NCBI GenBank assembly: GCA_022651245.1
Contig: JALCQM010000001.1
Coordinates: 62,001-126,000, forward strand
Source: Lactobacillus sp.
GTDB taxonomy: Bacteria; Bacillota; Bacilli; Lactobacillales; Lactobacillaceae
Reading direction: 5' to 3'
DNA length: 64,000 bases
Below the pieces are notes generated by a model, which saw only the letters and a program-made list of their open reading frames with translations, was not told where the DNA came from and did no database searches. Position numbers and translations under genes: made by a program. Of this stretch, positions 1 to 13,950 are shown piece by piece; the stretch's first letter is position 1; each line of letters opens with the position of its first letter.

Positions 1-825
1 TGCTGTAAAGATCATAATTAAGACGAAAAGCACCCAAGATAATGCACTGGAGTATCCCATATCAAAGGTTTTGAATGCGCTATCATAAATGTACATAGGA
101 AGTAAGTACGTCGCACGCATTGGGCCGCCACCCGTCACTAAGAACGGTCCTTCAAATTCTTGAAATCCTTGCACTAACTGTAAAACTAAGTTGAAGAAAA
201 TTACCGGCGAAAGCATAGGCAGCGTTACCGAAAAGAATTGACGGAATTTTGAGGCCCCGTCGATAGAAGCTGCTTCGTATAGCTCAGAAGGGATTTCAGC
301 CAGGCCATTGAGAAAGATAATCATTGCTGAACCAAACTGCCAGACACGTAATAATACAATCGTGAACATCGCTCCTGTAGGACTTGAAAACCAACCAAAT
401 CCCTGTAAGCCGACACGTTCCATTATCATGTTAATCAGACCGTCGTTTTTAAAGAGAAATTGCCATAACACCGCAATCGCGACGTTAGCGCCTAAGATTG
501 AGGGGATGTAATATGCTGTCCGGAAAAAACCGATCCCCTTCAACTTGGCATTCATGATGTAGGCGATGAAAAGTGCGAACACCATTTTAGCCGGTACGGT
601 CAATACAACAAATTTTACAGTCGCCCAGAAGGACTGCCAGAAATTTGGATCCACAAAGAACATCTTCTTGTAGTTTGCTAAACCTATAAATTGCGGAGAC
701 GACAGCATGCTGTAATCCGTAAAACTATAGTAAAACGACATCGCAAATGGATAGATGACAAACACGACGATCCCAATAATCCAAGGAATTAAGTATATTA
801 GGCTAAGATATCTCTCTTTCTTCAA
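1..825 (-). CDS. sugar ABC transporter permease (MalF/UgpA type), 3' end outside window
   Basis: Inner component of a carbohydrate ABC importer; 275 codons are visible and the end lies beyond the left edge. The start is a TTG at 823-825, seven bases after a GGAGGG ribosome site. The protein shows hydrophobic segments starting with YLSLIYLIPWIIGIVVF and, near the visible end, the permease EAA loop (ELYEAASIDGASKFRQFF...LPML) that contacts the ATPase. It lies about 65 bases after the solute-binding protein gene, on the same strand, so both belong to one operon whose second permease presumably continues to the left. The substrate is not evident; the neighbouring oxidoreductase suggests a sugar, polyol or glycoside. 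Confidence 0.9.
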   Translation of the reverse strand, partial: MKKERYLSLIYLIPWIIGIVVFVIYPFAMSFYYSFTDYSMLSSPQFIGLANYKKMFFVDPNFWQSFWATVKFVVLTVPAKMVFALFIAYIMNAKLKGIGFFRTAYYIPSILGANVAIAVLWQFLFKNDGLINMIMERVGLQGFGWFSSPTGAMFTIVLLRVWQFGSAMIIFLNGLAEIPSELYEAASIDGASKFRQFFSVTLPMLSPVIFFNLVLQLVQGFQEFEGPFLVTGGGPMRATYLLPMYIYDSAFKTFDMGYSSALSWVLFVLIMIFTA

Positions 826-846
826 TGAAAATCCCTCCAATCGTAA

Positions 847-880
847 CCGGGGTATGAAGCGTTGTTGCCCCATACCCCGG
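847..880 (-). terminator. intercistronic stem-loop between binding protein and permease
   Basis: CCGGGGTATG (847-856) pairs perfectly with CATACCCCGG (871-880) around a 14-base loop. There is no long T-tract on the minus strand, so it is more likely an mRNA processing or attenuation element that keeps the binding-protein message more abundant than the permease message than a full terminator. Confidence 0.6.
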
Positions 881-890
881 AGATAACAAA

Positions 891-2192
891 TTACTTAAAT
901 TCTGATTCTTGCTCCTTGAATGCGTTATAGAGTAACGTAGCCGCACCATCGACATCCGTTTTGCCATAATCTAGCTGTGTAAAGGCATCGCTTGCGGCTT
1001 CCATGGTAGTCGGTTGATCCCACCGATAAACGTTTGCCATCTTGGTGTCAACTGTACCTTCAGCAATCTTCAATGACTTCTTCATAAGTGGCGTAATCAG
1101 ACCTGCTTTTTCTAACGTATTACGCGCAACCTTACTATCTGGGACACCATTTTCAACCTTCTGGAGTTTTGCGGCCGTTGGATCATTAAGCATAAAATTG
1201 ATTAACTTTGCAGCAGCCTGTTGGTGCTTACTAGACTTAGGAATTGAGTAGAATGCTGATGGCTTAGACAATTCACCTGTCGATTTGCCATTTTTCATCG
1301 TTAAAGCCGGTACGATATCCAATGTCGCCCCCATGTCCTCGAATTGCGTTGCGAAAACATTGATATCTGTGTTCCAAGAGAATAGTGAAAGCCATTTTTG
1401 ATTAACAATACCTGGGAACGGTGCACCTTCAACAATACCCGAGTTATCAATTTCTTTTTTGGATGGGGTGATTTTCTTATCTACTAACGATTTGTAATAT
1501 TTTACAGCCTTAGTGAAATCTTTCTTTGTGTACAATAATTTGTTATCTGCATTGCCTACTGGCTTCCCAGTTTGCTCAGCCATGATCTGTAAAAGCAGCA
1601 ACGACGTCACGCTTTTCGGTTGGTAATAACTATAAAACGGAAAAACGTCATTAGGTAACTTGGAACGTGCTGCAAATAGATCTTCCCAAGTCTTTGGCTC
1701 TGCCACCCCATATTTTGCTAACGCTGACTTATTGACAAACAACTGCCGATAAATCGTTGAGACTGGCATTCCTAGCTGCTTACCATCTACCTTAGCAGCA
1801 GCTAATTTATCTTTAGTAAAATTGCTGGCACCTAATTCTTTACCCATCGAAGACATATCCACTAACTGGTCTTTATACGTCGTAATCCAGTTGCCATCAA
1901 TACGCATGACATCAGGTGCTGTGCCTCCTGACAGTTGAGTCGTTAACTTTTCTTGATAGGAATCAAAACCACCAAATTCAGTCTTTACGGTTATATTAGG
2001 GTTCTTTTTTTCAAACGCTTTGATTGCGGCTTGCATAGCTTTATGGCGAGAATCTCCACCCCACCAACTCATCCGAATTGTGACTTTGTCACCATTATCC
2101 GAATCAGTAGATTTCTTATTTGAACACGCACTTAAACTCAACAAGGCAGCCCCAACAGTAATCACACTTATAACAAATCCTTTTATTTTCAT
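891..2192 (-). CDS. sugar ABC transporter solute-binding lipoprotein (family 1)
   Basis: Extracellular binding protein of the adjacent importer, 433 residues. I place the start at the ATG at 2190-2192 because an AAAGGTG site precedes it; an upstream start would add ten residues ahead of the signal peptide. The N-terminus has Lys residues, a hydrophobic core and the lipobox L-S-A-C with the lipidated Cys at residue 23, followed by a Ser/Asn/Lys/Asp linker. The body (VTIRMSWWGGDSRHKAMQAAIKAFEKKNPNITV, later TAPDVMRIDGNW) is typical of family 1 sugar-binding proteins. First gene of a leftward operon with the permease; a divergent AraC gene begins 145 bases away and is the likely regulator. Confidence 0.93.
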   Translation of the reverse strand: MKIKGFVISVITVGAALLSLSACSNKKSTDSDNGDKVTIRMSWWGGDSRHKAMQAAIKAFEKKNPNITVKTEFGGFDSYQEKLTTQLSGGTAPDVMRIDGNWITTYKDQLVDMSSMGKELGASNFTKDKLAAAKVDGKQLGMPVSTIYRQLFVNKSALAKYGVAEPKTWEDLFAARSKLPNDVFPFYSYYQPKSVTSLLLLQIMAEQTGKPVGNADNKLLYTKKDFTKAVKYYKSLVDKKITPSKKEIDNSGIVEGAPFPGIVNQKWLSLFSWNTDINVFATQFEDMGATLDIVPALTMKNGKSTGELSKPSAFYSIPKSSKHQQAAAKLINFMLNDPTAAKLQKVENGVPDSKVARNTLEKAGLITPLMKKSLKIAEGTVDTKMANVYRWDQPTTMEAASDAFTQLDYGKTDVDGAATLLYNAFKEQESEFK

Positions 2193-2337
2193 GGTTTTCA
2201 CCTTTCTAATGATCGCCATCAATACCTCAACATTGTTTTTTATATCTTGAAATCAATTTAGTCGATTCACTTGCACACCGTCCGCATATCCACTATCATC
2301 ATTGTAAACGCCGTCATTTTTTAAAGGAGTAACCAAC

Positions 2338-3186
2338 GTGTCCCCTATATTTTCAAAGGATCTTATAGTCGAGAAGGTTTATCGCAATATGCCTTATAAA
2401 ATGGAAGGTCCTCACTCGCATAATCGTTATGAGATTTATTACCTATCCAAACTTGAAGGCACGGCTCACATCAATATTATGGGTAAAGATTATCCACTTA
2501 CTCAAGACTCTCTCGTCTTAATCGATAGCTTTTTACCCCATCAAACTGACTTTTCGGGTGCATCTGCTCACGAGCGCTACTTGATTGAAGTGGCACCGGA
2601 GCATTTTAGTAAAGAAGCCAGCCAACTCATTGATTTTCCGATCGACTTATTCTTCAAAAATTTCTATGGCGTCTATGCTTTGGATCCCAAAACTGCAATC
2701 ACGATCAAACATCTATTCATTTCGATCAATCGCGAGTTTATCTTGAATGAAAGCCAGTTCGAGAACATGATCATTCTCAAGCAACTGGAAATTTTCGTCT
2801 TGCTTGAGCGCTTTGTCGAACAAGAAAGCGACTACTTAGGTACGGCTGACCAACAACGGATAATCATTCCTGTTGTTAAATTCATCGTTGAACACTTTCA
2901 AGAAGAAATATCACTTTCGTCATTGGCTAACACTTTCTTTGTTGATAAATCTTATTTAGCGAGAACCTTCAAATGTTGTACTGGCAAAACCGTACACCGC
3001 TTCATCAATCAACGGCGCCTCGATATGGCCGAACGCTATTTAGCCATTCACACCGAGTATTCGATCGAAGAAATAGCCTATCTTTGTGGCTTTCATTCAC
3101 TGTCGTATTTCGATAAATTATTTCGCTCGATCGTCAATATCTCTCCTAAGCAATTTCGCCAAAGGTATCACACACAATCTCATTAG
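2338..3186 (+). CDS. AraC family transcriptional regulator with cupin sensor
   Basis: Probable activator of the divergent sugar ABC operon, 282 residues. The GTG start at 2338-2340 follows AAAGGAGT at seven bases. The N-terminal half is a cupin-like sensor (GPHSHNRYEIYYL near residues 24-36, DSLVLIDSFLPHQTDF). The C-terminal 100 residues hold two helix-turn-helix motifs (ISLSSLANTFFVDKSYLARTFKCCTG and SIEEIAYLCGFHSLSYFDKLFRSIVNISPKQFRQ), the usual AraC/XylS signature. It converges on the oxidoreductase gene with only seven bases between stops. Ligand unknown. Confidence 0.93.
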   Translation: MSPIFSKDLIVEKVYRNMPYKMEGPHSHNRYEIYYLSKLEGTAHINIMGKDYPLTQDSLVLIDSFLPHQTDFSGASAHERYLIEVAPEHFSKEASQLIDFPIDLFFKNFYGVYALDPKTAITIKHLFISINREFILNESQFENMIILKQLEIFVLLERFVEQESDYLGTADQQRIIIPVVKFIVEHFQEEISLSSLANTFFVDKSYLARTFKCCTGKTVHRFINQRRLDMAERYLAIHTEYSIEEIAYLCGFHSLSYFDKLFRSIVNISPKQFRQRYHTQSH

Positions 3187-3193
3187 TAACACG

Positions 3194-4477
3194 TCAGAAC
3201 TCTATTAAATCCTTCACAGTAATCGGCATACCAGAAGCAATCGATTTATTTGCTGCAATCCCGGTTAATATTGACATTGCGCCATCATAGGCAGAAGCTG
3301 CACGGTTCAGTGGATCCGGTTCCGGTACTCCAAAAATATCGTTTTGCAAAATTGGATCGCCACCACCGTGACCACCATGAGCTGTGTCAATCGCCACGTC
3401 ATACGGCTTACCGAACATTGGAAATACGGTAATATGCGCACCCTTGACCGCACCTTCAGCTTCAGGTTCCCCACCAGCATTGATATAGGACATCTCAACA
3501 ACCTTCATCTCGATACGTCCTTTACTGCCGTTAAATACGACATTAAAGCCCTCCCACGGTTCGAACGCATTCAACGAATACGTTAGAATCGTGCCATTAT
3601 CATACTTTGCGATGACACCCATCGTATCTTCAATTGAGATATCATCTGCAAATACGCTACGATCACGAATATAGCCACTGTCTTTTTCTGCATCTAGATA
3701 CAGTCCTTTAAGCTCCTCAGAACTTTCTAGATCAATCGCAAAAGGATCATTTTTTGCATATTCATTACCGTGTGCACGATAATAGAAATGTTCCACGCCG
3801 CGCTTTTCGGCATTCTTCATCCCATAGAAATTTAAATCACCAAAGGCAAAAACAGTTTTTGGAAAACTCTCCAGCCAAAAATTCACTAAATCAAAATGAT
3901 GTGTCGCTTTATGCACTAACAATCCGCCCGAATTGTACTTATTTCGATGCCAACGTCGGAAATAATCCGCACCGTGTTGCGTATTTAGCAACCACTCAAA
4001 GTGTACCGAGAAAACATCCCCAATTACCCCACTCCGGAGCAACTCTGCCAACTTACTGTTATGGGGCGCATACCGATAATTAAAAGTCACACGGATATTA
4101 CGTCCCGTCTCCTTTTGGGTATCAATTATCGCTTGTGCCTTATTCTCGTCAATCGTCATTGGTTTTTCAGTGATGACATCACAGCCCTTTTTCATGGCGC
4201 GAATAATATAATCATCGTGAGTTCGATCAACTGATGTCACAATCACATAATCAGGCTTTAATTCATCCAACATCTGATCAAACTCGGTGTACTTATACAT
4301 TTTAGCCGGCTTTTGACCATATGTTTCGGTAAGAATTCTGTTACAGAATCGCATACGTGTTTCGGAAATGTCACAAATTCCCACCAGCTCACAAGTCTCA
4401 GAAAATTTGGATGCAATTGCCTCATACCAAAAACGAGCTCGTCCCCCAATACCAACTTCAACGTACCTTTTCTTCAT
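3194..4477 (-). CDS. Gfo/Idh/MocA family NAD(P)-dependent oxidoreductase
   Basis: Likely sugar or inositol dehydrogenase/epimerase of 427 residues. The ATG at 4475-4477 is preceded by TAGGGGG. The N-terminus is a Rossmann fold (YVEVGIGGRARFWYEAIA), followed by EKPMTID, the family motif around the catalytic Lys (about residue 95), and by RYAPHNSKLAELLRSGVIGDVFSVHFEW of the second domain. GGLLVHKATHHFDLVNFW carries the conserved His/Asp region. It shares the strand of the ABC operon but lies beyond the AraC gene and so has its own promoter. Probably metabolises the sugar imported by the ABC system; the substrate cannot be named. Confidence 0.9.
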   Translation of the reverse strand: MKKRYVEVGIGGRARFWYEAIASKFSETCELVGICDISETRMRFCNRILTETYGQKPAKMYKYTEFDQMLDELKPDYVIVTSVDRTHDDYIIRAMKKGCDVITEKPMTIDENKAQAIIDTQKETGRNIRVTFNYRYAPHNSKLAELLRSGVIGDVFSVHFEWLLNTQHGADYFRRWHRNKYNSGGLLVHKATHHFDLVNFWLESFPKTVFAFGDLNFYGMKNAEKRGVEHFYYRAHGNEYAKNDPFAIDLESSEELKGLYLDAEKDSGYIRDRSVFADDISIEDTMGVIAKYDNGTILTYSLNAFEPWEGFNVVFNGSKGRIEMKVVEMSYINAGGEPEAEGAVKGAHITVFPMFGKPYDVAIDTAHGGHGGGDPILQNDIFGVPEPDPLNRAASAYDGAMSILTGIAANKSIASGMPITVKDLIEF

Positions 4478-5078
4478 TGCAAAACCCCCTACAGTATTTT
4501 TGTGACCTACCATTCATTGATAAGCCTTGCTACAGTGGAATAATAGCATGCTCACATTTTTTTGAAAGGGTTTTCAAACACAAAGCCATTTCATACTAGC
4601 GATTGCGTGTTTTTTTGTACAATATTGACTGATGATTCTAGCCTACCCTACACAGTATGCTAAGTACGCGTCTATTAGCCCGACAGTTCTACGGCCATCT
4701 GGTTGCTTACGTCTGTTATTCTTATCATTCTTGATCTTAGTGCCGATCCACTTAAGTTGAGTCACCTTGTTTCTGAATTATCGTTTGACAGACCCACGCA
4801 ATCATTGTAGAGATGACATGACCACACTGAGACTCGTTAGTACGTCACTAGTTATTGATGAAGACATATTAATCAGACAAAAAAGAAGTAGCTCTACTTG
4901 AACGAACTACTTCTCTCGGGACTTTTAAAAGTGATACTAACATCCTGAGACCTAGGAGTCTGCTTAGACCGAAGTGAAAGTCATTTGCACCTGTCGATGT
5001 AATGATGTCAATTCAACTTTGTTTATTAAAGTCTAGATTTAATCAGGTCTGCTGTAATGTACCCATTTTATAGTGGCA
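4478..5078. other. gene-poor spacer between oxidoreductase and radical SAM genes
   Basis: About 600 bases. Only the terminator at 4881-4914 and, presumably, the oxidoreductase promoter near 4500-4600 can be supported. No reading frame with a ribosome site was found. Confidence 0.6.
4880..4914 (-). terminator. rho-independent terminator downstream of the anSME operon
   Basis: AGAAGTAG (4884-4891) pairs with CTACTTCT (4907-4914). Read on the minus strand the stem is followed by a TTTTTTG run, about 165 bases after the stop of the sulfatase-maturase gene. Confidence 0.75.
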
Positions 5079-6218
5079 CTAAATATTCACCGTTTCTTGC
5101 TTCACCAGCTCGACATGCGCCATTTGCGCCATAATCTCATTTTGCTTAGGTACGATTGTCGACAACACCGCCTGATAGCCACAAAAGTCACTCTCTTCAT
5201 CGACGTACATCGCATCTTTCATTCGCTTGCATCCCCCACAACACATAGTCTTAAATGGACAAGTGGCACATTTGCTAGGAAGCGTCTTACGACTGCTTAA
5301 GAATGTCAATGCTTGGGGTTGGTGAAACAACTCGCTAAGCGTTTGCTCTTGTATGTATCCTAAACGGTATTCGTCTAAAGCATAGAAGTCACACGGGTAG
5401 ACACTTCCATCCGCTTCAATAACATATTGAACACGACATTGGCCTGTGATACCGCAAGCTGTAGCCCGTCCATAATGAAACAAGTTGATGATATCATCGA
5501 ATAACTTCACACTTTGATAAACGCCTGTTTGCAACTGTGCATACCACCGCTTAAAGTACTGCTTGTAAAAACTGGCAAAGCGTTGCGGAGTCAGTGCGTA
5601 TGAGCTTGAAGTGCCTGCATCTAAATCATCTAAGCAAGGAATGAACTGTATATACTGTATCCGCTCATTCATTAAAGCATCAAAAACTTCATCCGGTTGC
5701 GCTGCTAATTGATTGGTTAACACGCACAAAATATTGTAGTCAACATGATACTCGTCAAACAGTCGTTTCGTCTCGTGAACACGGTAATAGGTCCCTCTAC
5801 CTCTTACATCCACTCGATTCAGGTTATGATTCCTGGCCAAGCCATCGATAGATAAACCCACCAAAAATTCATTCGTCTTCAAGAATTGGCACCAACGCTC
5901 GTTGATTACCATTCCGTTAGTTTGAATCGCATAGTGCACCTGAACTGAGATTGGCTGTTGAGATACTGCTTGGACAAAATGCTCAAAATATGCTAATCCA
6001 GCAAGTGTTGGTTCACCACCTTGAAATGCAATCGATAATTCATCACCATCTTCAAGATCTGCAAAAACACTCGAAACGAGTTGGTTCACCAAAGTAGACT
6101 TCATGCGACCAAAAGATCGCACCTCACGCATAGAGCTGATATTAGCGTAAAAACAATACTTACAGCGCAAATTACACAATGATGACGCTGGTTTGATCAA
6201 CAAAGAGACACTTTTCAT
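5079..6218 (-). CDS. anaerobic sulfatase-maturating enzyme (radical SAM, SPASM)
   Basis: Radical SAM enzyme of 379 residues that would oxidise the active-site Cys of the sulfatase encoded at 12288-13649 to formylglycine. The ATG at 6216-6218 follows AAAGGAGG at five bases. C15-x3-C19-x2-C22 (CNLRCKYC) binds the SAM cluster; the GGEPT motif follows (AFQGGEPTLAG). The C-terminal SPASM region has many Cys (CGITGQCRV, YPCDFYALDEYRLG, SKCATCPFKTMCCGGCKRMKD) for auxiliary clusters, as in anSMEs. Length matches the family (370-400). Last gene of the EIIC-EIID-hydrolase-exporter-maturase operon. Together with a CxPSR-type sulfatase in the same locus the assignment is strong. Confidence 0.93.
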   Translation of the reverse strand: MKSVSLLIKPASSLCNLRCKYCFYANISSMREVRSFGRMKSTLVNQLVSSVFADLEDGDELSIAFQGGEPTLAGLAYFEHFVQAVSQQPISVQVHYAIQTNGMVINERWCQFLKTNEFLVGLSIDGLARNHNLNRVDVRGRGTYYRVHETKRLFDEYHVDYNILCVLTNQLAAQPDEVFDALMNERIQYIQFIPCLDDLDAGTSSSYALTPQRFASFYKQYFKRWYAQLQTGVYQSVKLFDDIINLFHYGRATACGITGQCRVQYVIEADGSVYPCDFYALDEYRLGYIQEQTLSELFHQPQALTFLSSRKTLPSKCATCPFKTMCCGGCKRMKDAMYVDEESDFCGYQAVLSTIVPKQNEIMAQMAHVELVKQETVNI

Positions 6219-6229
6219 GATAACCTCCT

Positions 6230-7012
6230 TTAAAAAAGGATCTGCCACGCATTATACAGATTCAATAATATGACCCCAGAAACGATCATTCGGTACAATC
6301 GCATAACCTGCTTAGCATCCATCTTTCTGCTTAAGGTCGCCCCAAGCGCACCACCAATTATCGCGGCTAACACAATTACAGGCAGAGTACTTAACTGCAC
6401 GTGCAATGAAGAAAAATGCATAAGGCTAACACTTAGCTTGGCTAATTGAGAAAACAAGATAATGCCGATTGAATATACTGTTGCCGTCTTCGCCTCAAGG
6501 CTAAAGATAGCAATCAACAAAGCCACATTAATTGGCCCACCGCCAATTCCAAGTAACGTCGCTAACGTTCCCAATAGCAACCCACTTGCCACCAACGCTA
6601 CTTCTTGCTGTCCAGGGCCCCATTGGATACGTAGTGGGCGAGTAAACAACAGCGCCAGTACCAAACTCATGATTGTCAATCCTATTTGAATTAGATTAAC
6701 CGTCTGTTCAGATCTTAATGTCAATAATAACCAGTTGATCAGAGAATCACCTAGTATGCCGCCGATCACCGCCCCGGATGACAGTTTAAATAGGGCCGGC
6801 CAATGTAATGCCATCCCATAACTAACTTGACGATAAGTCGAAACCATGGCCATCACGAACACTGCTAATGCCGAATAAAAATTAATCGCATTTAGTGGGC
6901 TAGCCGCCAAGGCGTCCATCATTGGCTTGATGATCACACCACCGCCCATGCCAGAGACCGCTCCAAGCGCGTTAGCGACAATAATAATTAAAAAATACCA
7001 CAGATTAAACAC
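6230..7012 (-). CDS. TauE/SafE family sulfur-oxyanion exporter
   Basis: Polytopic membrane protein of 260 residues. The GTG at 7010-7012 is chosen because GAGGAGC lies seven bases upstream and the hydrophobic N-terminus begins at once (MFNLWYFLIIIVANALG). The two repeat motifs of the family are visible: VSGMGGGVIIKPMMDAL near the N-terminus and LLGIGGGPINVALLIAIFSLEAKTA in the middle. Members are thought to export sulfite, sulfoacetate or related anions. Beside a cytoplasmic sulfatase the likely cargo is the sulfate or sulfite released inside the cell; that is inference. It ends 11 bases before the maturase start. Confidence 0.9.
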   Translation of the reverse strand: MFNLWYFLIIIVANALGAVSGMGGGVIIKPMMDALAASPLNAINFYSALAVFVMAMVSTYRQVSYGMALHWPALFKLSSGAVIGGILGDSLINWLLLTLRSEQTVNLIQIGLTIMSLVLALLFTRPLRIQWGPGQQEVALVASGLLLGTLATLLGIGGGPINVALLIAIFSLEAKTATVYSIGIILFSQLAKLSVSLMHFSSLHVQLSTLPVIVLAAIIGGALGATLSRKMDAKQVMRLYRMIVSGVILLNLYNAWQILF

Positions 7013-7027
7013 TATGGACGCTCCTCG

Positions 7028-7067
7028 TAAAAAGAAGGACCCGGATGTCAACACACCCGAGTCCAAG
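7028..7067 (-). terminator. imperfect stem-loop between hydrolase and exporter genes
   Basis: GGACCCGGATGT (7038-7049) pairs with ACACCCGAGTCC (about 7054-7065) with two mismatches. On the minus strand a CTTTTTAC run follows. It sits between the stop of the PHP-like hydrolase and the ribosome site of the exporter, so it probably attenuates downstream expression. Confidence 0.55.
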
Positions 7068-7076
7068 AAATTGGGA

Positions 7077-8621
7077 CTACTTCTTTGTTGGCGCAGATAG
7101 CCAAATTGGTGAACTCCAACCAGTCTGACCGTTAGTCTGAACAACTTTCACATAATAGCTATGCTCAGAGGTAGTCGGTAACACTGTAAACTTTGCAGCT
7201 GCTTGATAAGCCGACTGAGTCGCACCACGATAAAGTTTGACTTTGTATGCGTTATGATACCAACTGTCACTCCGGTAATACTCTGTGATCCCCGTTTTTT
7301 CTGCCAGTAGTTGCTTTGCCTCTGCCTCATAGACCAAGAGATGACTAGCAGCAAGAATCTCTTCTACAGAATAGTACTTCGTCAGGCCATTTATACTCAA
7401 GCTTAACTGGCTGTCACGTGACGCCTCGATTTCAAAGATGAAACCTTCGTTCTTAAGTGAATTGTCTCGCATCCAGCCATCCTGTTGAGCCGGTTGATGT
7501 GTCGTTGCCGTAAAACTAACGTGTTGATCGTCTTCAATTGCGTAATCGTTATCAAAGCCATTGTAAACCGGCTCAACACTAAACACGCGTCCCGTGGTCT
7601 CCAATCGTCCGTTCCACGCTTTAGACGAAGCCTCTGGAAATGAATTCGGGTCAGGCCCCCACCCACATTCAATTTGAAATTTAAACCGCACAGTAGGGCC
7701 AACATTTTCACTTGGTTGCCATAGCTTTATTTGCGAAATCTCGCCATCACGATATAACTCCAAACGTTCGAGCCGATTGTTGGCAGTCACTTCAGTCCTA
7801 ATTATCTGGGACGCAACATCTGTTTGGACGATGCTCCCCATCGGTTGTCCAGCTAATTCCATCCAAGTAATAATTTTAGAATCAGTGAAGCCAAAGGTCC
7901 TGCGTTGTTGCATCGCCTCCCACAAGGCCTCTTTCGTATAAGCACTTGCCCATATTCCAGCACGTCCATGCTTGACGAGAGCAGGAACTTCATGATTATC
8001 ACCTGAGGCAATAATGCCAAAATGATAGCCATTCTTCAGACCATCAACAACGGTGTTCCCATCAACCCGAGGTCCCATGTGCACATGACGGTTCATCGAC
8101 AGGTTTGTTTCATCACTTTCAGAGCTGCCGTGATGAGAATATATTTCGACTAACGGCGAAAACCTTTCATTGTGGGTGTTCCAGTTTTTACCTCGATTTC
8201 CACTAGAATAGGCTAAATGGTGTGGAATACCCATGACCTCTAGCCCAGAAAACGCGTGGACTAAATCTTGATAACGTGGTGCTAACAATAGGCGTCCTGA
8301 GTCATCTTTGAAATAAATATTGTGATCGCCATCTTCACCGGTCCCTTGCCATTCATAACCCAAAAAACTAATAAAATCATCATCACTGTTATGTGCTTTC
8401 AGATAGTCCTCAATAACCTGCCACTGCTGGTTTCGTGTTGCATTATCCAGCTCTTCTTCAGCTTTAAAACCATTCTTTACTGGTACCATATGATACGGAT
8501 AGTATGCTAACGTAAAGAAATCGGCGACTTTCTTTGTATGTTGGTACCACTTATCCAATAAATCGATTTGATCAGGGTGAAGATTGACATGTAAATCTGT
8601 AATATAACTTTTATATTTCAT
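7077..8621 (-). CDS. PHP-like metallohydrolase (DUF3604 / CehA-McbA type)
   Basis: 514-residue protein of a poorly characterised metallohydrolase family. His/Asp clusters appear in PHP order: TDLHVNLHPDQ at residues 9-19, DGDHNIYF near 97, MGIPHHLAY near 130, EIYSHHGSSE near 160, IIASGDNHE near 205. They could bind two or three metals. The C-terminal half is beta-rich with no recognised motif. No signal peptide, so it should act in the cytoplasm. Two adjacent ATGs follow GAGG; the second gives better spacing. It lies between the PTS EIID and exporter genes, so it likely acts on the imported phosphorylated sulfated sugar (phosphoester, sulfoester or carbamoyl hydrolysis are all open). Exact reaction unknown. 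Confidence 0.75.
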   Translation of the reverse strand: MKYKSYITDLHVNLHPDQIDLLDKWYQHTKKVADFFTLAYYPYHMVPVKNGFKAEEELDNATRNQQWQVIEDYLKAHNSDDDFISFLGYEWQGTGEDGDHNIYFKDDSGRLLLAPRYQDLVHAFSGLEVMGIPHHLAYSSGNRGKNWNTHNERFSPLVEIYSHHGSSESDETNLSMNRHVHMGPRVDGNTVVDGLKNGYHFGIIASGDNHEVPALVKHGRAGIWASAYTKEALWEAMQQRRTFGFTDSKIITWMELAGQPMGSIVQTDVASQIIRTEVTANNRLERLELYRDGEISQIKLWQPSENVGPTVRFKFQIECGWGPDPNSFPEASSKAWNGRLETTGRVFSVEPVYNGFDNDYAIEDDQHVSFTATTHQPAQQDGWMRDNSLKNEGFIFEIEASRDSQLSLSINGLTKYYSVEEILAASHLLVYEAEAKQLLAEKTGITEYYRSDSWYHNAYKVKLYRGATQSAYQAAAKFTVLPTTSEHSYYVKVVQTNGQTGWSSPIWLSAPTKK

Positions 8622-8636
8622 CATCGACCTCGCTGA

Positions 8637-9467
8637 CTACATAATGCCAAGTGCAACCATCACAGCCGCAAAAGCGAGGATCCCTAGCAATAGTTTAGTA
8701 GATCCCCAGTTACGTTTGGCGACTAAATAATAACAAACTAGCCCGACACCAAGTGGCAGTAAATTTGGCATAATTTTATCCAGGATCTGCTGAATATTGA
8801 TCACCATTTTGCCTGAAGTAAACTTCCAAATCACAGGCGCCTTCACTGTCGTGCTTGCCACACCACCAATTACAATCAGACCGACCATGGTCAACGTAGT
8901 CGTAATCATATTTTTAAGTCGCTCGTTCGTCAGCAACTTAACTGCGTCCAGCCCCATTGAATAGCCTTTGTTGAAAAGCCAATATTTCATGGTGACGACA
9001 ATTGCCAACCAAGAGACTAAGAATACTAAAGGACCGACAGGCGACCCATCTCTTGAGGAAAGGCCAATTCCGATACTTAAGAGAATTGGGTTTAAAGTCC
9101 CGACTAAAATTGAATCACCAATACCGGCAAAGGGGCCCATCAAAGCATTCTTGGTACTGCCAATAATGGATTCATCAAAATCTGGATTATTAGCTTTGGT
9201 TTCCTCTAGAGCTAGCGTAATACCGGGAATAACTGAACCTAATTGTGGCTCGGTATTAAAGAACGTCAGACTACGCTTTAATGCCTTAGAGAGTCCTTCC
9301 TTATCATCACCATAAAGCTTTTCCAAAGCACCGGACATACTGTGCGCAAAACCACCGCCTTGCATACGTTCGTAATTTTGGGAACTGAGTGCGAAGAAGT
9401 TCCAGCGCCAGTTAGCCTTTGCCACGTCTTTTTTAGTTAATTTTGTATTATTCTTCATAATCGTCAT
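8637..9467 (-). CDS. PTS mannose/sorbose-class EIID
   Basis: Membrane subunit of a mannose-class sugar PTS, about 276 residues. Motifs of EIID are clear: NYERMQGGGFAHSMSGALEKLY, FFNTEPQLGSVIPGITLALEE, GPFAGIGDSILVGTLNPILLSIG and the C-terminal hydrophobic helices. Several in-frame starts (9479 GTG, 9470, 9467 and 9458 ATG) lie around the ribosome site GAGGAG; I favour 9467. The gene overlaps the end of EIIC, implying translational coupling. The matching EIIA and EIIB are not next to it but at 11390-12276 on the other side of the GntR gene. Confidence 0.93.
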   Translation of the reverse strand: MTIMKNNTKLTKKDVAKANWRWNFFALSSQNYERMQGGGFAHSMSGALEKLYGDDKEGLSKALKRSLTFFNTEPQLGSVIPGITLALEETKANNPDFDESIIGSTKNALMGPFAGIGDSILVGTLNPILLSIGIGLSSRDGSPVGPLVFLVSWLAIVVTMKYWLFNKGYSMGLDAVKLLTNERLKNMITTTLTMVGLIVIGGVASTTVKAPVIWKFTSGKMVINIQQILDKIMPNLLPLGVGLVCYYLVAKRNWGSTKLLLGILAFAAVMVALGIM

Positions 9468-10269
9468 CATTCTCCTCACTTGTGCTTGGAGTTGCAGCTA
9501 CTACGGAAGATGCTCCTTCATTTTTACGATAAGCTGCCATTATATAGATCAATGACAATGCAATTGCGATAAACAATAACGCCGTCGTCGTCAAATTAAA
9601 CGATGACGTCAACACCCATCCAAAGATGAACAGGAAAATCATCCACTTTTCACTAAGAATTTGTTTCAATAGAATTGCAAAACCCAATGCTGGTAATAAC
9701 TGCCCACCAACTTGTAAGAAATCCAACACAAACTTTGGTAATGCATTCAACAATCCCTGTGCAAAAGGCGCGCCGATGAAACAAGTTAGCGTAACAATCA
9801 AGAATCGTTCTGCAAAAGATACTGACGTCGCCATAATGTTCGCCCGTCGAACACCCCTGGCATCGCCACGTTCCGCACAACGATCCGCACGATGCGGAAA
9901 GGCCGCTTGAACCGTCATCGTAAAGTTGTGCAGACCTACACCTAACGCGCCTAACGGTACTGCGAATGCAACAGCGGTTGCTGGAGACCCACTACTTGCA
10001 ATCGCCAAAGGAATCCCAATATACGCTGCCAAATTTAAATCAGATGGTACCGCACCACCTGGCGTAATCTGGCCAAGAAAAATTGCCTGGACAGCAACAC
10101 CACAGAGGACTCCCGCTTTTACATCACCGAGAATAATTCCACAAATCAATCCAGCCACCAACGGTCGGCCAAGTCCGTACCAGCCCCCCGTTGTTCCGAA
10201 AAACCACGGAACTTGGTTGCGTCCAAGATAGGCGAATAATCCTATCAATACCGCTTGCCACAATTGCAT
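9448..10269 (-). CDS. PTS mannose/sorbose-class EIIC
   Basis: Sugar-translocating membrane subunit, about 273 residues with several hydrophobic helices. Family landmarks: GRPLVAGLICGIILGDVKAGVLCGVAVQAIFLGQITPGGAVPSD and HRADRCAERGD. An ATG at 10267-10269 has AAAGG ten bases upstream; an earlier GTG at 10276-10278 is too close to that site. First gene of the operon that continues through EIID, PHP-like hydrolase, exporter and maturase, driven by the promoter at 10348-10376. The substrate is inferred from context to be a sulfated sugar. Confidence 0.93.
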   Translation of the reverse strand: MQLWQAVLIGLFAYLGRNQVPWFFGTTGGWYGLGRPLVAGLICGIILGDVKAGVLCGVAVQAIFLGQITPGGAVPSDLNLAAYIGIPLAIASSGSPATAVAFAVPLGALGVGLHNFTMTVQAAFPHRADRCAERGDARGVRRANIMATSVSFAERFLIVTLTCFIGAPFAQGLLNALPKFVLDFLQVGGQLLPALGFAILLKQILSEKWMIFLFIFGWVLTSSFNLTTTALLFIAIALSLIYIMAAYRKNEGASSVVAATPSTSEENDDDYEE

Positions 10270-10347
10270 GCTGTTCACACCTTTCGTCTAAATGAAAATA
10301 GCCAATAATTCCAACATCTAAAAACAAATATCATACTTGACAATTTG

Positions 10348-10376
10348 ATTATATGGCCAGGTACAACCGCTTACAA
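10348..10376 (-). promoter_or_regulatory. promoter of EIIC-EIID-hydrolase-exporter-maturase operon with cre-like site
   Basis: Minus-strand -35 TTGTAA (10371-10376) and -10 TATAAT (10348-10353) with a 17-base spacer. A 14-base sequence TGTAAGCGGTTGTA (minus strand, 10362-10375) matches the catabolite-responsive element pattern at 12 of 14 positions and overlaps the -35, suggesting CcpA repression. Confidence 0.7.
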
Positions 10377-10399
10377 CGTATCCGGCTGATTTTGATATA

Positions 10400-10433
10400 A
10401 CAAATTGATTTGTATTAGGACAAATATTATAAT
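10400..10433 (+). promoter_or_regulatory. GntR gene promoter with overlapping operator half-sites
   Basis: -35 TTGATT (10405-10410), 17-base spacer, -10 TATAAT (10428-10433). Three half-sites overlap it: ACAAAT (10400-10405), ATTTGT (10408-10413), ACAAAT (10420-10425). Similar sites lie in the sulfatase promoter, so this is the likely GntR operator and implies autoregulation. Confidence 0.65.
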
Positions 10434-10505
10434 GATTGCGATTACATCTCGTACTCAACTTTTTATACCAACTTCTCCTACATTACAGATTGAAGGAAAA
10501 CCGCT

Positions 10506-11252
10506 ATGAAAGCATCTACTGTTCCACTTTACGTTGAAATCACCAAAGATTTAACTAGTCGCATTGAACAAGGTGAATTCCGGCGCGGTGATAAATTACC
10601 CACTGAGCAACAACTCACGCAACAATACCATGTCTCGCGAGTCACCATCCGCCAAGCTGTCCAGCAGCTTGCCAACAAGGGATATATCAAAAAGATTCAA
10701 GGTAGTGGCTCACATGTCCTGTACTCCCCACAAAATCTACTGATGAACCGCTCAGCCCAGATTCTTTCTTACTCTGAAGAATTGCGCCAACGTGGCAAAC
10801 ACGCCTCATATCGCGTTATTAGCTTCTCCCTACAAGAAGCTCCGACTAAAATTTGTACCAGGTTAGACTTACACTCAGAAACCCGCGTGTATTACTACGA
10901 AAGAGTTCTTTCCAGCGATGACATTCCCTATTGCTACGAAGAAGGCTATATGCCCTACGGTTTTTTCCCTGATCTTTCCGCAACACACCTAGAGCACTCA
11001 CGTCTTGATTACGTGGAGAAAGATAAGGGCATTGAGATCGATTACTCACACCAGATCGTCCAAGCAATCTTGCCTGACGAGCGGATGATGCATTTGCTGG
11101 GGCTAGACGAACGAAAGCCACTCATTCGCAATTCACATGTAACCTATGACATGTCAGGCAAGCCAATCTTCAGCACTGTCAACATTTTTGACACTGATTC
11201 CTACCAGGCCAACTTTATTAAGAAGCGGCATCACAGCGATCCCGATACTTAA
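10506..11252 (+). CDS. GntR family regulator, HutC/UTRA subfamily
   Basis: 248-residue regulator of the sulfated-sugar locus. ATG preceded by GAAGGA at eight bases. N-terminal winged helix (YVEITKDLTSRIEQGEFRRGDKLPTEQQLTQQYHVSRVTIRQAVQQLANKGYIKKIQGSGSHV) and C-terminal UTRA ligand-binding domain (RVYYYERVLSSDDIPYCYEEGYMPYGFFPDL... NSHVTYDMSGKPIFSTVNIFD), which usually senses a phosphorylated sugar. It is transcribed opposite to all neighbours and splits the PTS genes into two units; it converges on the EIIB gene at a shared terminator. Confidence 0.94.
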   Translation: MKASTVPLYVEITKDLTSRIEQGEFRRGDKLPTEQQLTQQYHVSRVTIRQAVQQLANKGYIKKIQGSGSHVLYSPQNLLMNRSAQILSYSEELRQRGKHASYRVISFSLQEAPTKICTRLDLHSETRVYYYERVLSSDDIPYCYEEGYMPYGFFPDLSATHLEHSRLDYVEKDKGIEIDYSHQIVQAILPDERMMHLLGLDERKPLIRNSHVTYDMSGKPIFSTVNIFDTDSYQANFIKKRHHSDPDT

Positions 11253-11308
11253 TCAAACATAGCGCTAGGCACTATATCAGCATTCATGTTTCGTAAAGCC
11301 ATAATAAA

Positions 11309-11349
11309 ATGCCTTCACACCGCGCATAAATTACGTGGTGCGAGGGCAT
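11309..11349. terminator. bidirectional terminator between gntR and EIIB
   Basis: A 16-bp stem (11309-11324 with 11334-11349) in which the three non-identical positions are G-T wobbles. T-rich tracts follow on both strands (CGTTTTC on plus; TTTTATTATGG on minus). It ends both the GntR message and the sulfatase-EIIA-EIIB message. Confidence 0.8.
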
Positions 11350-11389
11350 CGTTTTCTGTCAAAGGTGTTCTATGTCTTAGATGCTCTGA

Positions 11390-11863
11390 TTATAGATCGT
11401 CTATCACAATTGGCTGATCATTCGGCACCATTTGGTAAATAAACTTCGTTCCAGCAGCATGCAACTCATTGACCTGAGAAATCTCTTCTGGTGTCAAATT
11501 AATGGTCTTTTGAATCTTCTTCGTGTTCTCACGGTTAGGAATATTTCCTAATGTCACCTCATCAAAGTGATAGCCTTTATCAGCAAGCTTCTTGATTGAA
11601 TCTATTTTCTCAAACAATACCAACGTACGCTCATTTGGATACGCATCGGGGTCAGTTAGTCGAATATATGCTTTTTCGGTCGATAAAATCGACAGCTTTG
11701 TGCCTTCTGGTTTTGCTAACTTCAGCGCCATTTTCTGGGTTGCATCTTTAACTGCATCATCATCAATCACCATGATCCGATTAATACTAAACTTTGGGAT
11801 CCAAGTGGTCTGCACTTGCCCATGAATCCCTCGTGAGTCTACGCGTACATTCATGATTTCCAT
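11390..11863 (-). CDS. PTS mannose/sorbose-class EIIB
   Basis: Cytoplasmic phosphotransfer subunit, 157 residues. The phosphorylated His is in DSRGIHGQVQTTW near residue 15; the family usually has R-L-I-H-G-Q, so a Gly replaces Leu two residues before the His. ATG preceded by AAGGAG at seven bases. It lies 11 bases after the EIIA gene and before a bidirectional terminator. The EIIC and EIID partners are in the second unit of the locus. Confidence 0.92.
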   Translation of the reverse strand: MEIMNVRVDSRGIHGQVQTTWIPKFSINRIMVIDDDAVKDATQKMALKLAKPEGTKLSILSTEKAYIRLTDPDAYPNERTLVLFEKIDSIKKLADKGYHFDEVTLGNIPNRENTKKIQKTINLTPEEISQVNELHAAGTKFIYQMVPNDQPIVIDDL

Positions 11864-11874
11864 TATATTTCTCC

Positions 11875-12276
11875 TTATTCCTCATCTTCGTCTACAGCAT
11901 TAAGCTTCTTTATGACATCTTGAATTCCTTGTTGACCATCACGAATAATTTCTTCTGTAGTCAAATTTGGAGTTAAGACTGCACTCAACAGCATTGGCAA
12001 GTTAAAGCCACTAACCATACGTACGTCTGAACGAGAAAATAGGCGACTTACAACCAAATTATTTGGTGACCCACCTAATAAATCCGAAAAGATAGTTAAG
12101 GGCTCTCCCTTTGGACGCGCTTCCAAAATCTGTTCTAACTGTGCCGTTAAATCTTCATTACCTTGATCGGGAGCAAGTGAAACCGTCTCGATTCCATCAG
12201 TCATTCCTGTAATCATCTTAATCGAATATTTCGCCGCCTCTGGCATTCGACCATGTCCCACAATAATAATTGCCAT
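11875..12276 (-). CDS. PTS mannose/sorbose-class EIIA
   Basis: Cytoplasmic EIIA of 133 residues that takes phosphate from HPr on the His in IIIVGHGRMPEAA (residue 8). The domain continues with IFSDLLGGSPNNLV and VSGFNLPMLLSAVL, both typical. Start ATG has GGGGTG six bases upstream. It starts 11 bases after the sulfatase stop, so the sulfatase is cotranscribed with the PTS phosphotransfer proteins. Confidence 0.93.
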   Translation of the reverse strand: MAIIIVGHGRMPEAAKYSIKMITGMTDGIETVSLAPDQGNEDLTAQLEQILEARPKGEPLTIFSDLLGGSPNNLVVSRLFSRSDVRMVSGFNLPMLLSAVLTPNLTTEEIIRDGQQGIQDVIKKLNAVDEDEE

Positions 12277-12287
12277 TTTTTACACCC

Positions 12288-13649
12288 CTATTCCGGTAAG
12301 TTTTCGTACTCAGACTTATCTTTAGCATGCGCTGAATATGCTTCGCGCTTGTTGACCTTCCAGCTTGACTGAATGGGAATTGGCCCATTTAGTAATGGAT
12401 CTTCTGTACGAACCATAAAATCAGATAACCGTTGGCGCATATTGGTTAACTGCGCCAGATATCTTGGATCGTCCAAAAGGTTATTTGTCTCCATGACATC
12501 ATAGTACAAATCGTATAGTGCCTCTTTAGGCTTGGTAACTTCTCGCAGACCTTCTTGTGCATAAAATGTCTTAGTCGGTGAATTATCAATGTTCGACAAG
12601 TTTAAGTGCTCATAATCATCGAAGTAGCGGATATATTTATAACGCTTAGATCTGACTGAACGAATCGGTTCATATGACGTATGAAAATTAACTTCGCCAA
12701 AAACGTAATCATCACCCTTATACTCATTACCATCAAAAATCGGTGCAAAGCTCTTTCCTTCGAGATAATTTGGCTTTTCAAGATTGACCAAATCTAGCAA
12801 TGTTGGAATCACATCAATTTGGGACAACAACCCATTATATTCTGCGGGGACGCAACCCGGAACCCGGATTGCCATCAGAACGCCGATACCACTATCCGTG
12901 AGGGTGCACTTAGCAAAAGGAAAAGCTACGCCGTGATCAGTGGTCAAGACAATAATCGTTTTCTCATAAAGGCCGTTTCGTTTAAGTGCATCCAACACAA
13001 CTTTCAGATTGTGATCAGCATATTCTGCACTCGTTTCAAAAGCCGCAAAATCTTGCCGTGTTTCAGGGTCATTAGCAACATTTAAAGGTGGACGGGCACT
13101 ACTGACTGCGATGTCTTTAGCAATCGTCTGCGGATACTGCCTGTGCGTTGCGTGCATCCCAAAGGAAACAAAAAAAGGCTGCGTATCAGTACGCTCATCA
13201 AACCAATTCGCTAGTTTATCAGCATTATGATTATCCCATTCGACAAGATGCTCTTCGTCGTATTGCGAACTATCAGTCGTCAAATCCCGCTGATATCCAA
13301 GATTATCCACTGCCAAAGCATGGTCTGTATAATATCCAATTTCGTGCTGAACCCCACATAAGGCTGTCTCATAACCATGATCGCGCAAGTAACGGGCTAA
13401 GTGAAGTCGCTTATCCAGCTTGAACCCGCGCTGCGCTAAGCCTAACATCCCATTTTGATGCGGATACACCCCGGTTAACAAGCTAGCACGACTTGGCGAG
13501 CAAGTCGGCGCAACACTGAACGCATTTTGAAATAAAATAGCGTCCTGACAAAATGCCTGATACTCCGGCGTCGGCACACCATAACCATACGCACTGACAA
13601 GTCGCCCCGTATCGTGCGTATGAATATAAATAATATTCAAAATTTTCAC
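12288..13649 (-). CDS. cytoplasmic Cys-type sulfatase, N-sulfoglucosamine-sulfohydrolase-like
   Basis: Type I sulfatase of about 453 residues. C50-S-P-S-R-A-S-L-L-T-G is the formylglycine signature of Cys-type sulfatases, and PHQNGMLGL after it resembles SGSH-type (heparan N-sulfatase) enzymes. N-terminal THDTGR and later TTDHGVAFPFAKCTL supply metal and sulfate ligands. There is no signal peptide, so it should work in the cytoplasm on a PTS-imported substrate. Start is GTG 13649 or, with better ribosome-site spacing, TTG 13640. First gene of the sulfatase-EIIA-EIIB unit. The linkage cut (N- or O-sulfate) and the sugar are not determined. Confidence 0.9.
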   Translation of the reverse strand: MKILNIIYIHTHDTGRLVSAYGYGVPTPEYQAFCQDAILFQNAFSVAPTCSPSRASLLTGVYPHQNGMLGLAQRGFKLDKRLHLARYLRDHGYETALCGVQHEIGYYTDHALAVDNLGYQRDLTTDSSQYDEEHLVEWDNHNADKLANWFDERTDTQPFFVSFGMHATHRQYPQTIAKDIAVSSARPPLNVANDPETRQDFAAFETSAEYADHNLKVVLDALKRNGLYEKTIIVLTTDHGVAFPFAKCTLTDSGIGVLMAIRVPGCVPAEYNGLLSQIDVIPTLLDLVNLEKPNYLEGKSFAPIFDGNEYKGDDYVFGEVNFHTSYEPIRSVRSKRYKYIRYFDDYEHLNLSNIDNSPTKTFYAQEGLREVTKPKEALYDLYYDVMETNNLLDDPRYLAQLTNMRQRLSDFMVRTEDPLLNGPIPIQSSWKVNKREAYSAHAKDKSEYENLPE

Positions 13650-13739
13650 CCCACTTCAAATTACTGATAAGTTCAGTATAAAACGAATGAAACCATTTTC
13701 AATAAATCAAATCCGATTCGCACAACTTCTTGATTTTTG

Positions 13740-13770
13740 GTATAACAAATATTGACAATACAATACAAAT
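13740..13770 (-). promoter_or_regulatory. sulfatase-EIIA-EIIB promoter with GntR-type half-sites
   Basis: Minus-strand -35 TTGTAT (13763-13768), 17-base spacer, -10 TTATAC (13740-13745). ACAAAT occurs at 13745-13750 and 13765-13770, matching the half-sites in front of gntR, so both units are probably controlled together. Confidence 0.65.
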
Positions 13771-13897: not shown

Positions 13898-13950
13898 AAA
13901 CCCAAAAGCGCCTAAGCCACTTCAACGATGGCTTAGGCGCTTTTGGGTTT
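13898..13950. terminator. long perfect palindrome, bidirectional terminator
   Basis: Two perfectly complementary 22-base arms (13898-13919 and 13929-13950) around a 9-base loop; the core pairs GCGCCTAAGCCA with TGGCTTAGGCGC. It follows the stop of the isomerase gene by about 28 bases on the minus strand; T-runs are weak but A/T-rich outer arms serve. Confidence 0.85.

What the first reader, a model, noticed from the sequence alone, without database searches (positions are those of the whole stretch)
5079..13649. A cytoplasmic sulfatase built into a mannose-class PTS locus with its own maturase, a TauE exporter and a PHP-like hydrolase
Seen: CSPSR-type sulfatase without signal peptide, anSME, TauE/SafE, DUF3604-like hydrolase, all with EIIA-EIIB-EIIC-EIID and one GntR. 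Known: anSMEs mature Cys-type sulfatases; bacterial sulfatases of glycan loci are mostly exported, and mannose-class PTS usually carries plain sugars. Inference: a sulfated amino sugar or monosaccharide enters by PTS, is phosphorylated, then desulfated inside, and TauE exports the oxyanion so it does not build up. The hydrolase would act on the phosphorylated intermediate. No glycoside hydrolase is present, so a monosaccharide is likelier than an oligosaccharide. This combination may be a previously undescribed sulfated-sugar pathway.
Basis: partly seen in the sequence, partly recalled or inferred. Interest (0 to 1): 0.88.

Follow-up and report, generated by a model that had tools for sequence, protein, structure and literature searches.

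The report
PTS-linked sulfated amino-sugar desulfation cluster
This bacterium carries a gene set, shared with distantly related bacteria, that probably imports a sulfated glucosamine, strips its sulfate groups inside the cell with two unrelated enzymes and expels the sulfate.

Summary
The genes are there as described: a leaderless Cys-type sulfatase, mannose-class EIIA/B/C/D, GntR, a DUF3604/PHP protein, TauE and an anSME-like maturase, on an AT-rich island. In a scan seeded only with the PHP protein, 31 of the 37 closest loci carry the same sulfatase clade together with a PTS (Enterococcus, Clostridium, Lachnospiraceae, Erysipelotrichaceae, Synergistaceae, Halolactibacillus, Atopobiaceae among them). 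New here: the PHP protein is a distant homologue (26%) of the protein occupying the BT4655 position in a Bacteroides heparan-sulfate PUL; deleting BT4655 in B. theta leaves N-sulfoglucosamine unused. NanE (5 of 37), NagB (3) and a NagE-type PTS (Cetobacterium) beside it point to an N-substituted glucosamine. The sulfatase is closest in fold to human sulfamidase, but has Lys where sulfamidase has its diagnostic Arg, so I read it as an O-sulfatase. Best reading: PTS uptake of N- (and probably O-) sulfated glucosamine, two cytoplasmic desulfations giving GlcN-6-P, sulfate exported. No substrate is proven. A lactose-class PTS + sulfatase + maturase + TauE island was described in pneumococcus in 2012, so this is a new variant of a known kind.

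The parts
12288..13649 (-). Leaderless Cys-type S1 sulfatase (CSPSR at residues 50-54), SGSH/S1_8-like fold with O-sulfatase-type Lys247
11875..12276 (-). PTS EIIA, mannose family
   Evidence: PF03610 70 bits
11390..11863 (-). PTS EIIB, mannose/sorbose family (one EIIA-EIIB ORF of 303-307 aa in the Enterococcus relatives)
   Evidence: PF03830 148.7 bits; L010, L044, L045, L047
10506..11252 (+). GntR/UTRA regulator, inside the cluster on the opposite strand
   Evidence: PF00392 + PF07702
9448..10278 (-). PTS EIIC
   Evidence: PF03609 213.4 bits; 75-77% identical in Enterococcus
8637..9479 (-). PTS EIID
   Evidence: PF03613 306.3 bits
7077..8624 (-). DUF3604/PHP-fold protein, distant relative of the BT4655-position protein; proposed N-desulfating enzyme
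6230..7144 (-). TauE/SafE-family membrane protein, proposed sulfate exporter
   Evidence: PF01925 97.6 bits
5079..6248 (-). anSME-like radical SAM/SPASM sulfatase maturase
10394..10405 (+). Operator-like motif GATATAACAAAT in the EIIC/GntR gap
   Evidence: motif chosen after the fact
13739..13750 (+). Second copy of the motif (GGTATAACAAAT) upstream of the sulfatase
   Evidence: motif chosen after the fact
13688..13701 (.). cre-like palindrome TGAAACCATTTTCA upstream of the sulfatase (one base off the CcpA consensus, which is recalled)
   Evidence: read by eye from the sequence printed; no statistics run

Best explanation
A catabolic operon for a sulfated amino sugar, most likely N-sulfoglucosamine (GlcNS) also carrying an O-sulfate, possibly at O3. 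Steps: (1) the mannose-class PTS imports it and phosphorylates O6 (inferred). (2) The anSME-matured cytoplasmic sulfatase removes the O-sulfate (inferred; Cys-type site shown). (3) The DUF3604/PHP metallo-protein cleaves the N-sulfate of GlcNS-6-P, giving GlcN-6-P (inferred from distant homology to the BT4655 position and from gene neighbours). (4) The genome's own NagB feeds GlcN-6-P to glycolysis (NagB shown by homology). (5) TauE exports sulfate (inferred). GntR controls both halves (inferred from the repeated motif).
For: Co-occurrence: 80 loci found with an alignment of PHP proteins alone. Of the 37 closest, 34 have a PTS EIIC/EIID-type gene within 9 kb, 31 the sulfatase clade, 31 both. 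The PTS class varies: mannose class in 26, only glucose/sucrose/NagE type in 8, so enzymes and phosphorylated uptake stay linked while the transporter changes. Amino-sugar neighbours: NanE in 5, NagB in 3 (one at 26% identity) of 37, and a NagE-type PTS above the equivalog cut-off directly before the PHP gene in Cetobacterium (L060; same order in L039). PHP fold (3e38 Z 17.8). The B. finegoldii homologue lies between a sulfatase and ROK in an HS PUL, the BT4655 place in the BT4652-BT4657 order. Deletion of bt4655 leaves GlcNS in the medium (review passages), and BT4655 is not predicted to be fGly-dependent. Sulfatase Lys247 in 32 of 32, aligned to Arg282 of SGSH, the residue that PMC4014121 gives as separating N- from O-sulfatases (passages). 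NagB in the own genome.
Against: The PHP protein is only 26% identical to the B. finegoldii one (120 of 464) and far from it in the tree; BT4655 itself was equated by gene order, not aligned. The 43 more distant PHP loci have no PTS hit and only 8 of 43 a sulfatase within 6 kb, so the wider family has other roles. G970 has the sulfatase, PTS and maturase but no PHP match in its genome. Sulfatase relatives of 40-44% (L026, L033, L034, L035) show no PTS by eye and their genomes no PHP match. The sulfatase is nearest to S1_8 enzymes, which cut at C2, and O3 specificity is not shown. It lacks the usual fGly-binding Lys (Ile/Val in 32 of 32). NanE is unexplained. Only 10 of 37 loci carry the maturase and 11 TauE within 9 kb.
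Confidence: 0.42

Rival explanations
1. The fGly sulfatase is itself the N-sulfamidase (acting on GlcNS-6-P), and the PHP protein does something else, for example an N-deacylation or a second hydrolysis on a variant substrate.
For: Top structural match of the sulfatase model is human sulfamidase (4mhx Z 41.3, rmsd 2.1, 403 aligned), 2.5 Z above the next entry that is not sulfamidase; SGSH_C domain hit; G970 has no PHP match but keeps PTS + sulfatase; P. heparinus uses an S1_8 N-sulfamidase (review passages).
Against: Diagnostic Arg282 of SGSH is Lys in 32 of 32; the PHP gene also occurs after a NagE-type PTS with no sulfatase among the annotated neighbours in Cetobacterium; BT4655 genetics assign N-desulfation to the other family.
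Confidence: 0.22
2. The substrate is a neutral O-sulfated sugar (for example a 2-sulfated hexose), and the PHP protein is a phospho-sugar or ester hydrolase unrelated to N-sulfate.
For: Best profile match of the sulfatase is S1_8A, E 4.6e-60, interpreted by its authors as a monosaccharide-specific galactose-2-sulfatase (passages); O-sulfatase-type Lys247; Halolactibacillus and Maledivibacter members (habitats recalled as saline or marine), where heparan sulfate is unlikely.
Against: NanE, NagB and NagE-type PTS neighbours point to amino sugars, though only in a minority of loci.
Confidence: 0.16
3. The imported substrate is a sulfated disaccharide or glycoside (for example heparan-derived) that is cut after phosphorylation.
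For: A GH4 gene precedes the PHP gene in 3 of 37 loci, with sucrose/trehalose-type PTS; PTS import of glycosaminoglycan disaccharides was proposed for Streptococcus and Lactobacillus (PMC6045597 passages).
Against: No glycosidase in the window cluster; no GH88 and no Hepar_II_III_C in the own genome. Among gene families found in two or more of the 37 loci I recognised only GH4 (3 loci) and a GH2-containing group (4 loci); several of those families were not Pfam-scanned.
Confidence: 0.12
4. The cluster scavenges sulfur rather than carbon.
For: It would release sulfate (inferred; sulfatase).
Against: PTS coupling, TauE and cre-like sites (window and Enterococcus gaps, read by eye) fit carbon use; lactobacilli are generally held not to assimilate sulfate (recalled).
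Confidence: 0.04

Closest known systems
Pneumococcal PTS-sulfatase accessory island (SPH1922-1930; McAllister 2012 PMC3283741, Bidossi 2012 PMC3302838)
   Same: PTS + sulfatase + sulfatase-modifying factor + TauE in one island; a NanE-like protein by the authors' HHpred; substrate unknown; contributes to fitness in mice (one section; passages).
   Different: Lactose-type PTS and a ROK regulator instead of mannose class and GntR; no DUF3604/PHP gene is mentioned in the passages seen. The sequences were not compared.
BT4655 of the B. thetaiotaomicron heparan-sulfate PUL
   Same: Proposed GlcNS N-desulfatase not dependent on formylglycine (passages); the homologue at that place in B. finegoldii shares 18 columns invariant over 66 rows.
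   Different: The B. finegoldii protein is annotated with a Tat signal sequence and would act outside the cytoplasm on unphosphorylated GlcNS; only 26% identical.
S1_8 sulfatases: human sulfamidase SGSH and lambda-carrageenan S1_8A
   Same: Fold, fGly motif, SGSH_C domain.
   Different: Lys at the SGSH Arg282 position; no fGly-binding Lys; cytoplasmic and PTS-linked.
Streptococcal/Lactobacillus glycosaminoglycan clusters (PMC6045597)
   Same: EIIA-B-C-D PTS proposed to feed cytoplasmic processing of host glycosaminoglycan fragments, with desulfation (passages).
   Different: Those carry UGL, a lyase and Kdu/Dhu genes; the window cluster has none and its genome no GH88 or Hepar_II_III_C.

Membership tests
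S1 formylglycine sulfatase | PF00884 above gathering score with C-x-P-S-R | tested here: met
   130.9 bits against 25; C50, S51, P52, S53 and R54 invariant in the 32 sequences of A3
S1 formylglycine sulfatase | fGly-binding Lys (Lys123 in SGSH) | tested here: not met
   Ile 24/Val 8 of 32 at residue 100; aligned to the Lys of 7lha
SGSH-type N-sulfamidase | Arg282 in place of the O-sulfatase Lys (PMC4014121 passages) | tested here: not met
   Lys247 in 32 of 32, aligned to Arg282
SGSH-type N-sulfamidase / S1_8 | Overall fold and SGSH_C domain | tested here: met
   4mhx Z 41.3; PF16347 61.5 bits
BT4655-type N-desulfatase | Same protein family, PHP fold, shared active-site residues | tested here: inconclusive
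   26% identity to the B. finegoldii homologue, 18 columns invariant in 66 rows; BT4655 equated by gene order only
BT4655-type N-desulfatase | Cleaves the N-sulfate of GlcNS | not testable with these tools
   needs enzyme assay
anSME | Radical SAM + SPASM, closest to characterised anSME | tested here: inconclusive
   4k37 E 2e-87; TIGR03942 330.8 bits, cut-off 349.45
Mannose-family PTS | Complete EIIA, EIIB, EIIC, EIID | tested here: met
   all four above gathering scores
TauE/SafE exporter | PF01925 above gathering score | tested here: met
   97.6 bits against 32.6
TauE/SafE exporter | Exports sulfate | not testable with these tools
   needs transport assay
Pneumococcal PTS-sulfatase island | Lactose-type PTS with ROK regulator | tested here: not met
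   mannose class and GntR here

The most novel reading that the evidence does not exclude
A PTS-coupled, wholly cytoplasmic pathway that uses two mechanistically unrelated desulfating enzymes, an fGly O-sulfatase and a PHP-fold metallo-sulfamidase acting on a sugar phosphate, to consume N,O-sulfated glucosamine, spread by horizontal transfer among Bacillota, Actinomycetota (Atopobiaceae) and Synergistota, with a PTS + PHP half-version in Fusobacteriota (Cetobacterium). It would let such bacteria live on heparan-sulfate monosaccharides released by others, and would define the biochemistry of the uncharacterised BT4655 family.
Probability: 0.33. Interest if true: 0.77.

Novelty: new variant of a known kind. 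Interest (0 to 1): 0.6.

Why it matters
If true it suggests a substrate class for orphan PTS-sulfatase islands (one affects pneumococcal fitness in mice, PMC3283741 passages), offers soluble cytoplasmic homologues through which the uncharacterised BT4655-type N-desulfatases could be assayed, and shows how non-degraders could cross-feed on host heparan sulfate. It makes the question testable with one purified enzyme.

Tried and rejected
Single-protein scan of genome contigs with the sulfatase: 17 stretches matched a pattern, none confirmed, so the second scan used the PHP alignment A1. That choice biases the sample to the PHP clade; the sulfatase and PTS counts do not depend on the query. The list stopped at 80 loci, so more may exist.

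My greedy ORF caller failed in GC-rich loci (L046, L048, L049) and missed the PHP gene in L053 and L068; the counts therefore come from tblastn. The NanE, NagB, GH4, second-sulfatase and glucose-type PTS queries were themselves taken from these loci. Redundancy: L047 is the same contig as G393 (both 83,700 bases), L010 (G393) and L039 were in the seed alignment, and the Holdemania loci L059/L064/L072 are close copies; counts were not de-duplicated. 'glcPTS 10' includes L044 and L062, where a 27-28% extra match lies beside a mannose-class PTS; 8 loci have the glucose type alone.

Looked for residues kept only in PTS-linked PHP proteins: R117, R179, H180 and H182 are candidates for phosphate binding, but PTS-linked rows fall in one 35-row set with 4 others, so descent explains them equally well; L067 was counted there as non-PTS though it has EIIA and EIIB. 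Not used as evidence.

Foldseek and VIA matches of the PHP model's C-terminal half to immunoglobulin-like domains were taken as a common arrangement. No PDB sequence relative of the PHP protein was found at E <= 0.001.

Rejected: secreted sulfatase (no leader). Not reached: S1 subfamily assignment by SulfAtlas; comparison with the pneumococcal sulfatase sequence; the genus of the window.
Full report
What is there. The window lies in a 2.77-Mb genome of the order that also holds Enterococcus (G393, an Enterococcus cecorum contig by its length and coordinates, is listed as 'same order'); its genus was not identified. At 5079-13649 it carries a leaderless Cys-type sulfatase, EIIA, EIIB, a divergent GntR, EIIC, EIID, a DUF3604/PHP protein, TauE and an anSME-like maturase. 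GC is 0.43 here against 0.51-0.55 to the right, third-position GC 0.31-0.49 against 0.72-0.75 in three genes just outside, and the edge is sharp between 13 and 15 kb: an acquired island. GntR splits the set into sulfatase-EIIA-EIIB and EIIC-EIID-PHP-TauE-anSME. The motif KRTATAACAAAT occurs exactly twice in 64 kb, upstream of each half (0.03 expected, 0 of 100 shuffles with two; the motif was picked after seeing both sites), and a related sequence lies in the Enterococcus GntR-sulfatase gaps (by eye). cre-like sites are visible by eye in the window gap and in Enterococcus, which fits a carbon-source operon.

Conservation. Sulfatase relatives are rare and patchy, own genome included in each count: 2 of 60 relatives at E <= 1e-30, 4 of 395 of the order at 1e-40, 6 of 398 of the class at 1e-45, 9 of 398 of the phylum at 1e-50. 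The closest are in similar gene sets: G393 has GntR, sulfatase, fused EIIAB, EIIC, EIID, PHP, anSME and TauE; G970 has anSME, GntR, sulfatase, EIIAB, EIIC, EIID without PHP; G1146 has sulfatase beside a glucose-type EIICB and anSME on one contig and PHP with NanE on another. A scan of genome contigs with an alignment of five PHP proteins gave 80 loci. In the first 37 as listed (L044-L080, 35-59% identity): PTS EIIC/EIID-type gene 34, mannose class (EIIC+EIID) 26, glucose/sucrose/NagE type alone 8, sulfatase clade 31, sulfatase with PTS 31, GntR 25, a second sulfatase 15, TauE 11, anSME 10, NanE 5, NagB 3, GH4 3, all within 9 kb. The six without the sulfatase clade are L060, L066, L067, L074, L078 (a homologue of about 38%, just under the line) and L079; L060, L067, L074 and L078 are on short contigs. 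The complete window set occurs in three Enterococcus loci (L044, L045, L047). Atopobiaceae (L046, L048, L049; Actinomycetota) carry sulfatase-EIIA-EIIB-EIIC-EIID-PHP with EIIC 69% identical, which suggests transfer between phyla. In the 43 more distant loci PTS is found in none and a sulfatase within 6 kb in 8. Sulfatase homologues of 40-44% (L026, L033, L034, L035) showed no PTS by eye and no PHP match in their genomes. At 32-37% four of the eight contexts read lie beside PTS EIIC genes (L006 lactose/cellobiose class, L011 and L012 trehalose/sucrose type, L029 unspecified), twice with a YdjC protein nearby; in L027, L028, L036 and L037 none was seen by eye.

What the PHP protein may be. The model (pLDDT 92.4) matches PHP metallo-enzymes (3e38 Z 17.8, 2anu Z 17.4). 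In Bacteroides finegoldii a homologue (26% identity) lies in the order HepC, sulfatase, this protein, ROK, MFS, DUF4962 protein, which matches the BT4657 (PL12), BT4656, BT4655, BT4654 (kinase), BT4653 (transporter), BT4652 (PL15) order of the B. thetaiotaomicron heparin PUL (PMC9067506 passages). BT4655 is described as an uncharacterised de-N-sulfating enzyme of a novel family whose deletion leaves GlcNS in the medium (PMC10154612 passages), not predicted to be formylglycine-dependent (PMC11980591 passages). H12, E91, H135, H136, E160, H165 and D209 are among 18 columns invariant in 66 rows including B. finegoldii. Against this, the tree puts the B. finegoldii row far from the PTS clade, and the wider family has many members without any sulfatase nearby.

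What the sulfatase may be. Profile search ranks S1_8A first (E 4.6e-60) and fold comparison ranks human sulfamidase first (Z 41.3). The residue that PMC4014121 gives as separating N- from O-sulfatases, Arg282 (passages), is Lys247 here in 32 of 32 and the two align. Characterised S1_8 enzymes cut at C2 (PMC12549532 passages; PMC10154612 passages). So the position it attacks is open: O3 of a GlcNS, a 2-sulfate, or N-sulfate despite the Lys. The usual fGly-binding Lys is Ile or Val, which is unusual and untested.

Pathway logic. Neighbours in part of the loci point to an N-substituted glucosamine phosphate: a NagE-type PTS above its equivalog cut-off before a PHP gene in Cetobacterium (L060 on a 7-kb contig; L039 with no sulfatase among the annotated features of 29.5 kb), NanE-type epimerases with two PTS classes, NagB in Halolactibacillus, a SIS protein in L056, and SIS, kinase, ABC transporter, PHP and sulfatase together in Salipiger. 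The own genome has NagB but no GH88 or Hepar_II_III_C match, so it would use monosaccharide made by others. Shown: gene content, conservation, predicted folds, residues. Inferred: substrate, order of steps, phosphorylated intermediates, sulfate export.

Known or new. PTS + sulfatase + maturase + TauE is in print for pneumococcus with a lactose-type PTS, with a NanE-like protein by the authors' HHpred. In the held open-access library DUF3604 occurs in one paper, on Chlamydia transposon mutants (listing). Searches combining sulfatase, PTS, GlcNS, sulfamidase, TauE and related terms listed no paper whose title or abstract start describes this pathway; three of these lists were cut at 20 of 325, 141 and 110 papers, and subscription papers are mostly not held. 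I therefore file it as a new variant of a known kind, with the PHP/BT4655 link as the new part.

Noticed in passing
L057, L062, L063, L070, L073, L126: NanE-type N-acetylmannosamine-6-phosphate 2-epimerases recur in these loci and, by published HHpred, in the pneumococcal island; no reason for a 2-epimerase is known to me.
   Followed up: partly
L030 (G970): Sulfatase, complete mannose-class PTS, GntR and anSME with no PHP match in the genome, suggesting the sulfatase step can stand alone.
   Followed up: partly
L006, L011, L012, L029: Sulfatase homologues of 32-36% identity next to PTS EIIC genes, twice with YdjC, in other Bacilli: PTS-linked sulfatases may be a broader theme.
   Followed up: partly
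L050, L051, L053, L055, L056, L058, L061, L065, L067, L068, L071, L079, L080: A second sulfatase directly before the PHP gene; the L050 copy is choline-sulfatase-like.
   Followed up: no
L129 and window 1-4513: Upstream AT-rich stretch holds several large glycosidase-like ORFs, a FAD protein, an ABC transporter part and an uronate-isomerase-like ORF, read by eye: a separate glycan locus.
   Followed up: no
window 13898-13950: Perfect 22-bp inverted repeat with a 9-base loop right at the GC boundary of the island.
   Followed up: no
window 43000-64000: A second AT-rich stretch (GC mostly 0.40-0.48 against mostly 0.53-0.61 in 31-43 kb).
   Followed up: no
L047 15626-19047: MFS_2 transporter and a beta-glucuronidase (NF007538 914 bits, cut-off 544) about 2-6 kb downstream of TauE in Enterococcus cecorum.
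   Followed up: partly
L075, L076, L077: GH4 glycosidase with sucrose/trehalose-type PTS in Maledivibacter and Halolactibacillus, hinting at an alpha-glycoside substrate there.
   Followed up: partly
L032 1622-3055: ORF joining a sigma-54-type activator N-terminus (by eye) to the C-terminal part of a PHP protein; likely a contig artefact.
   Followed up: no
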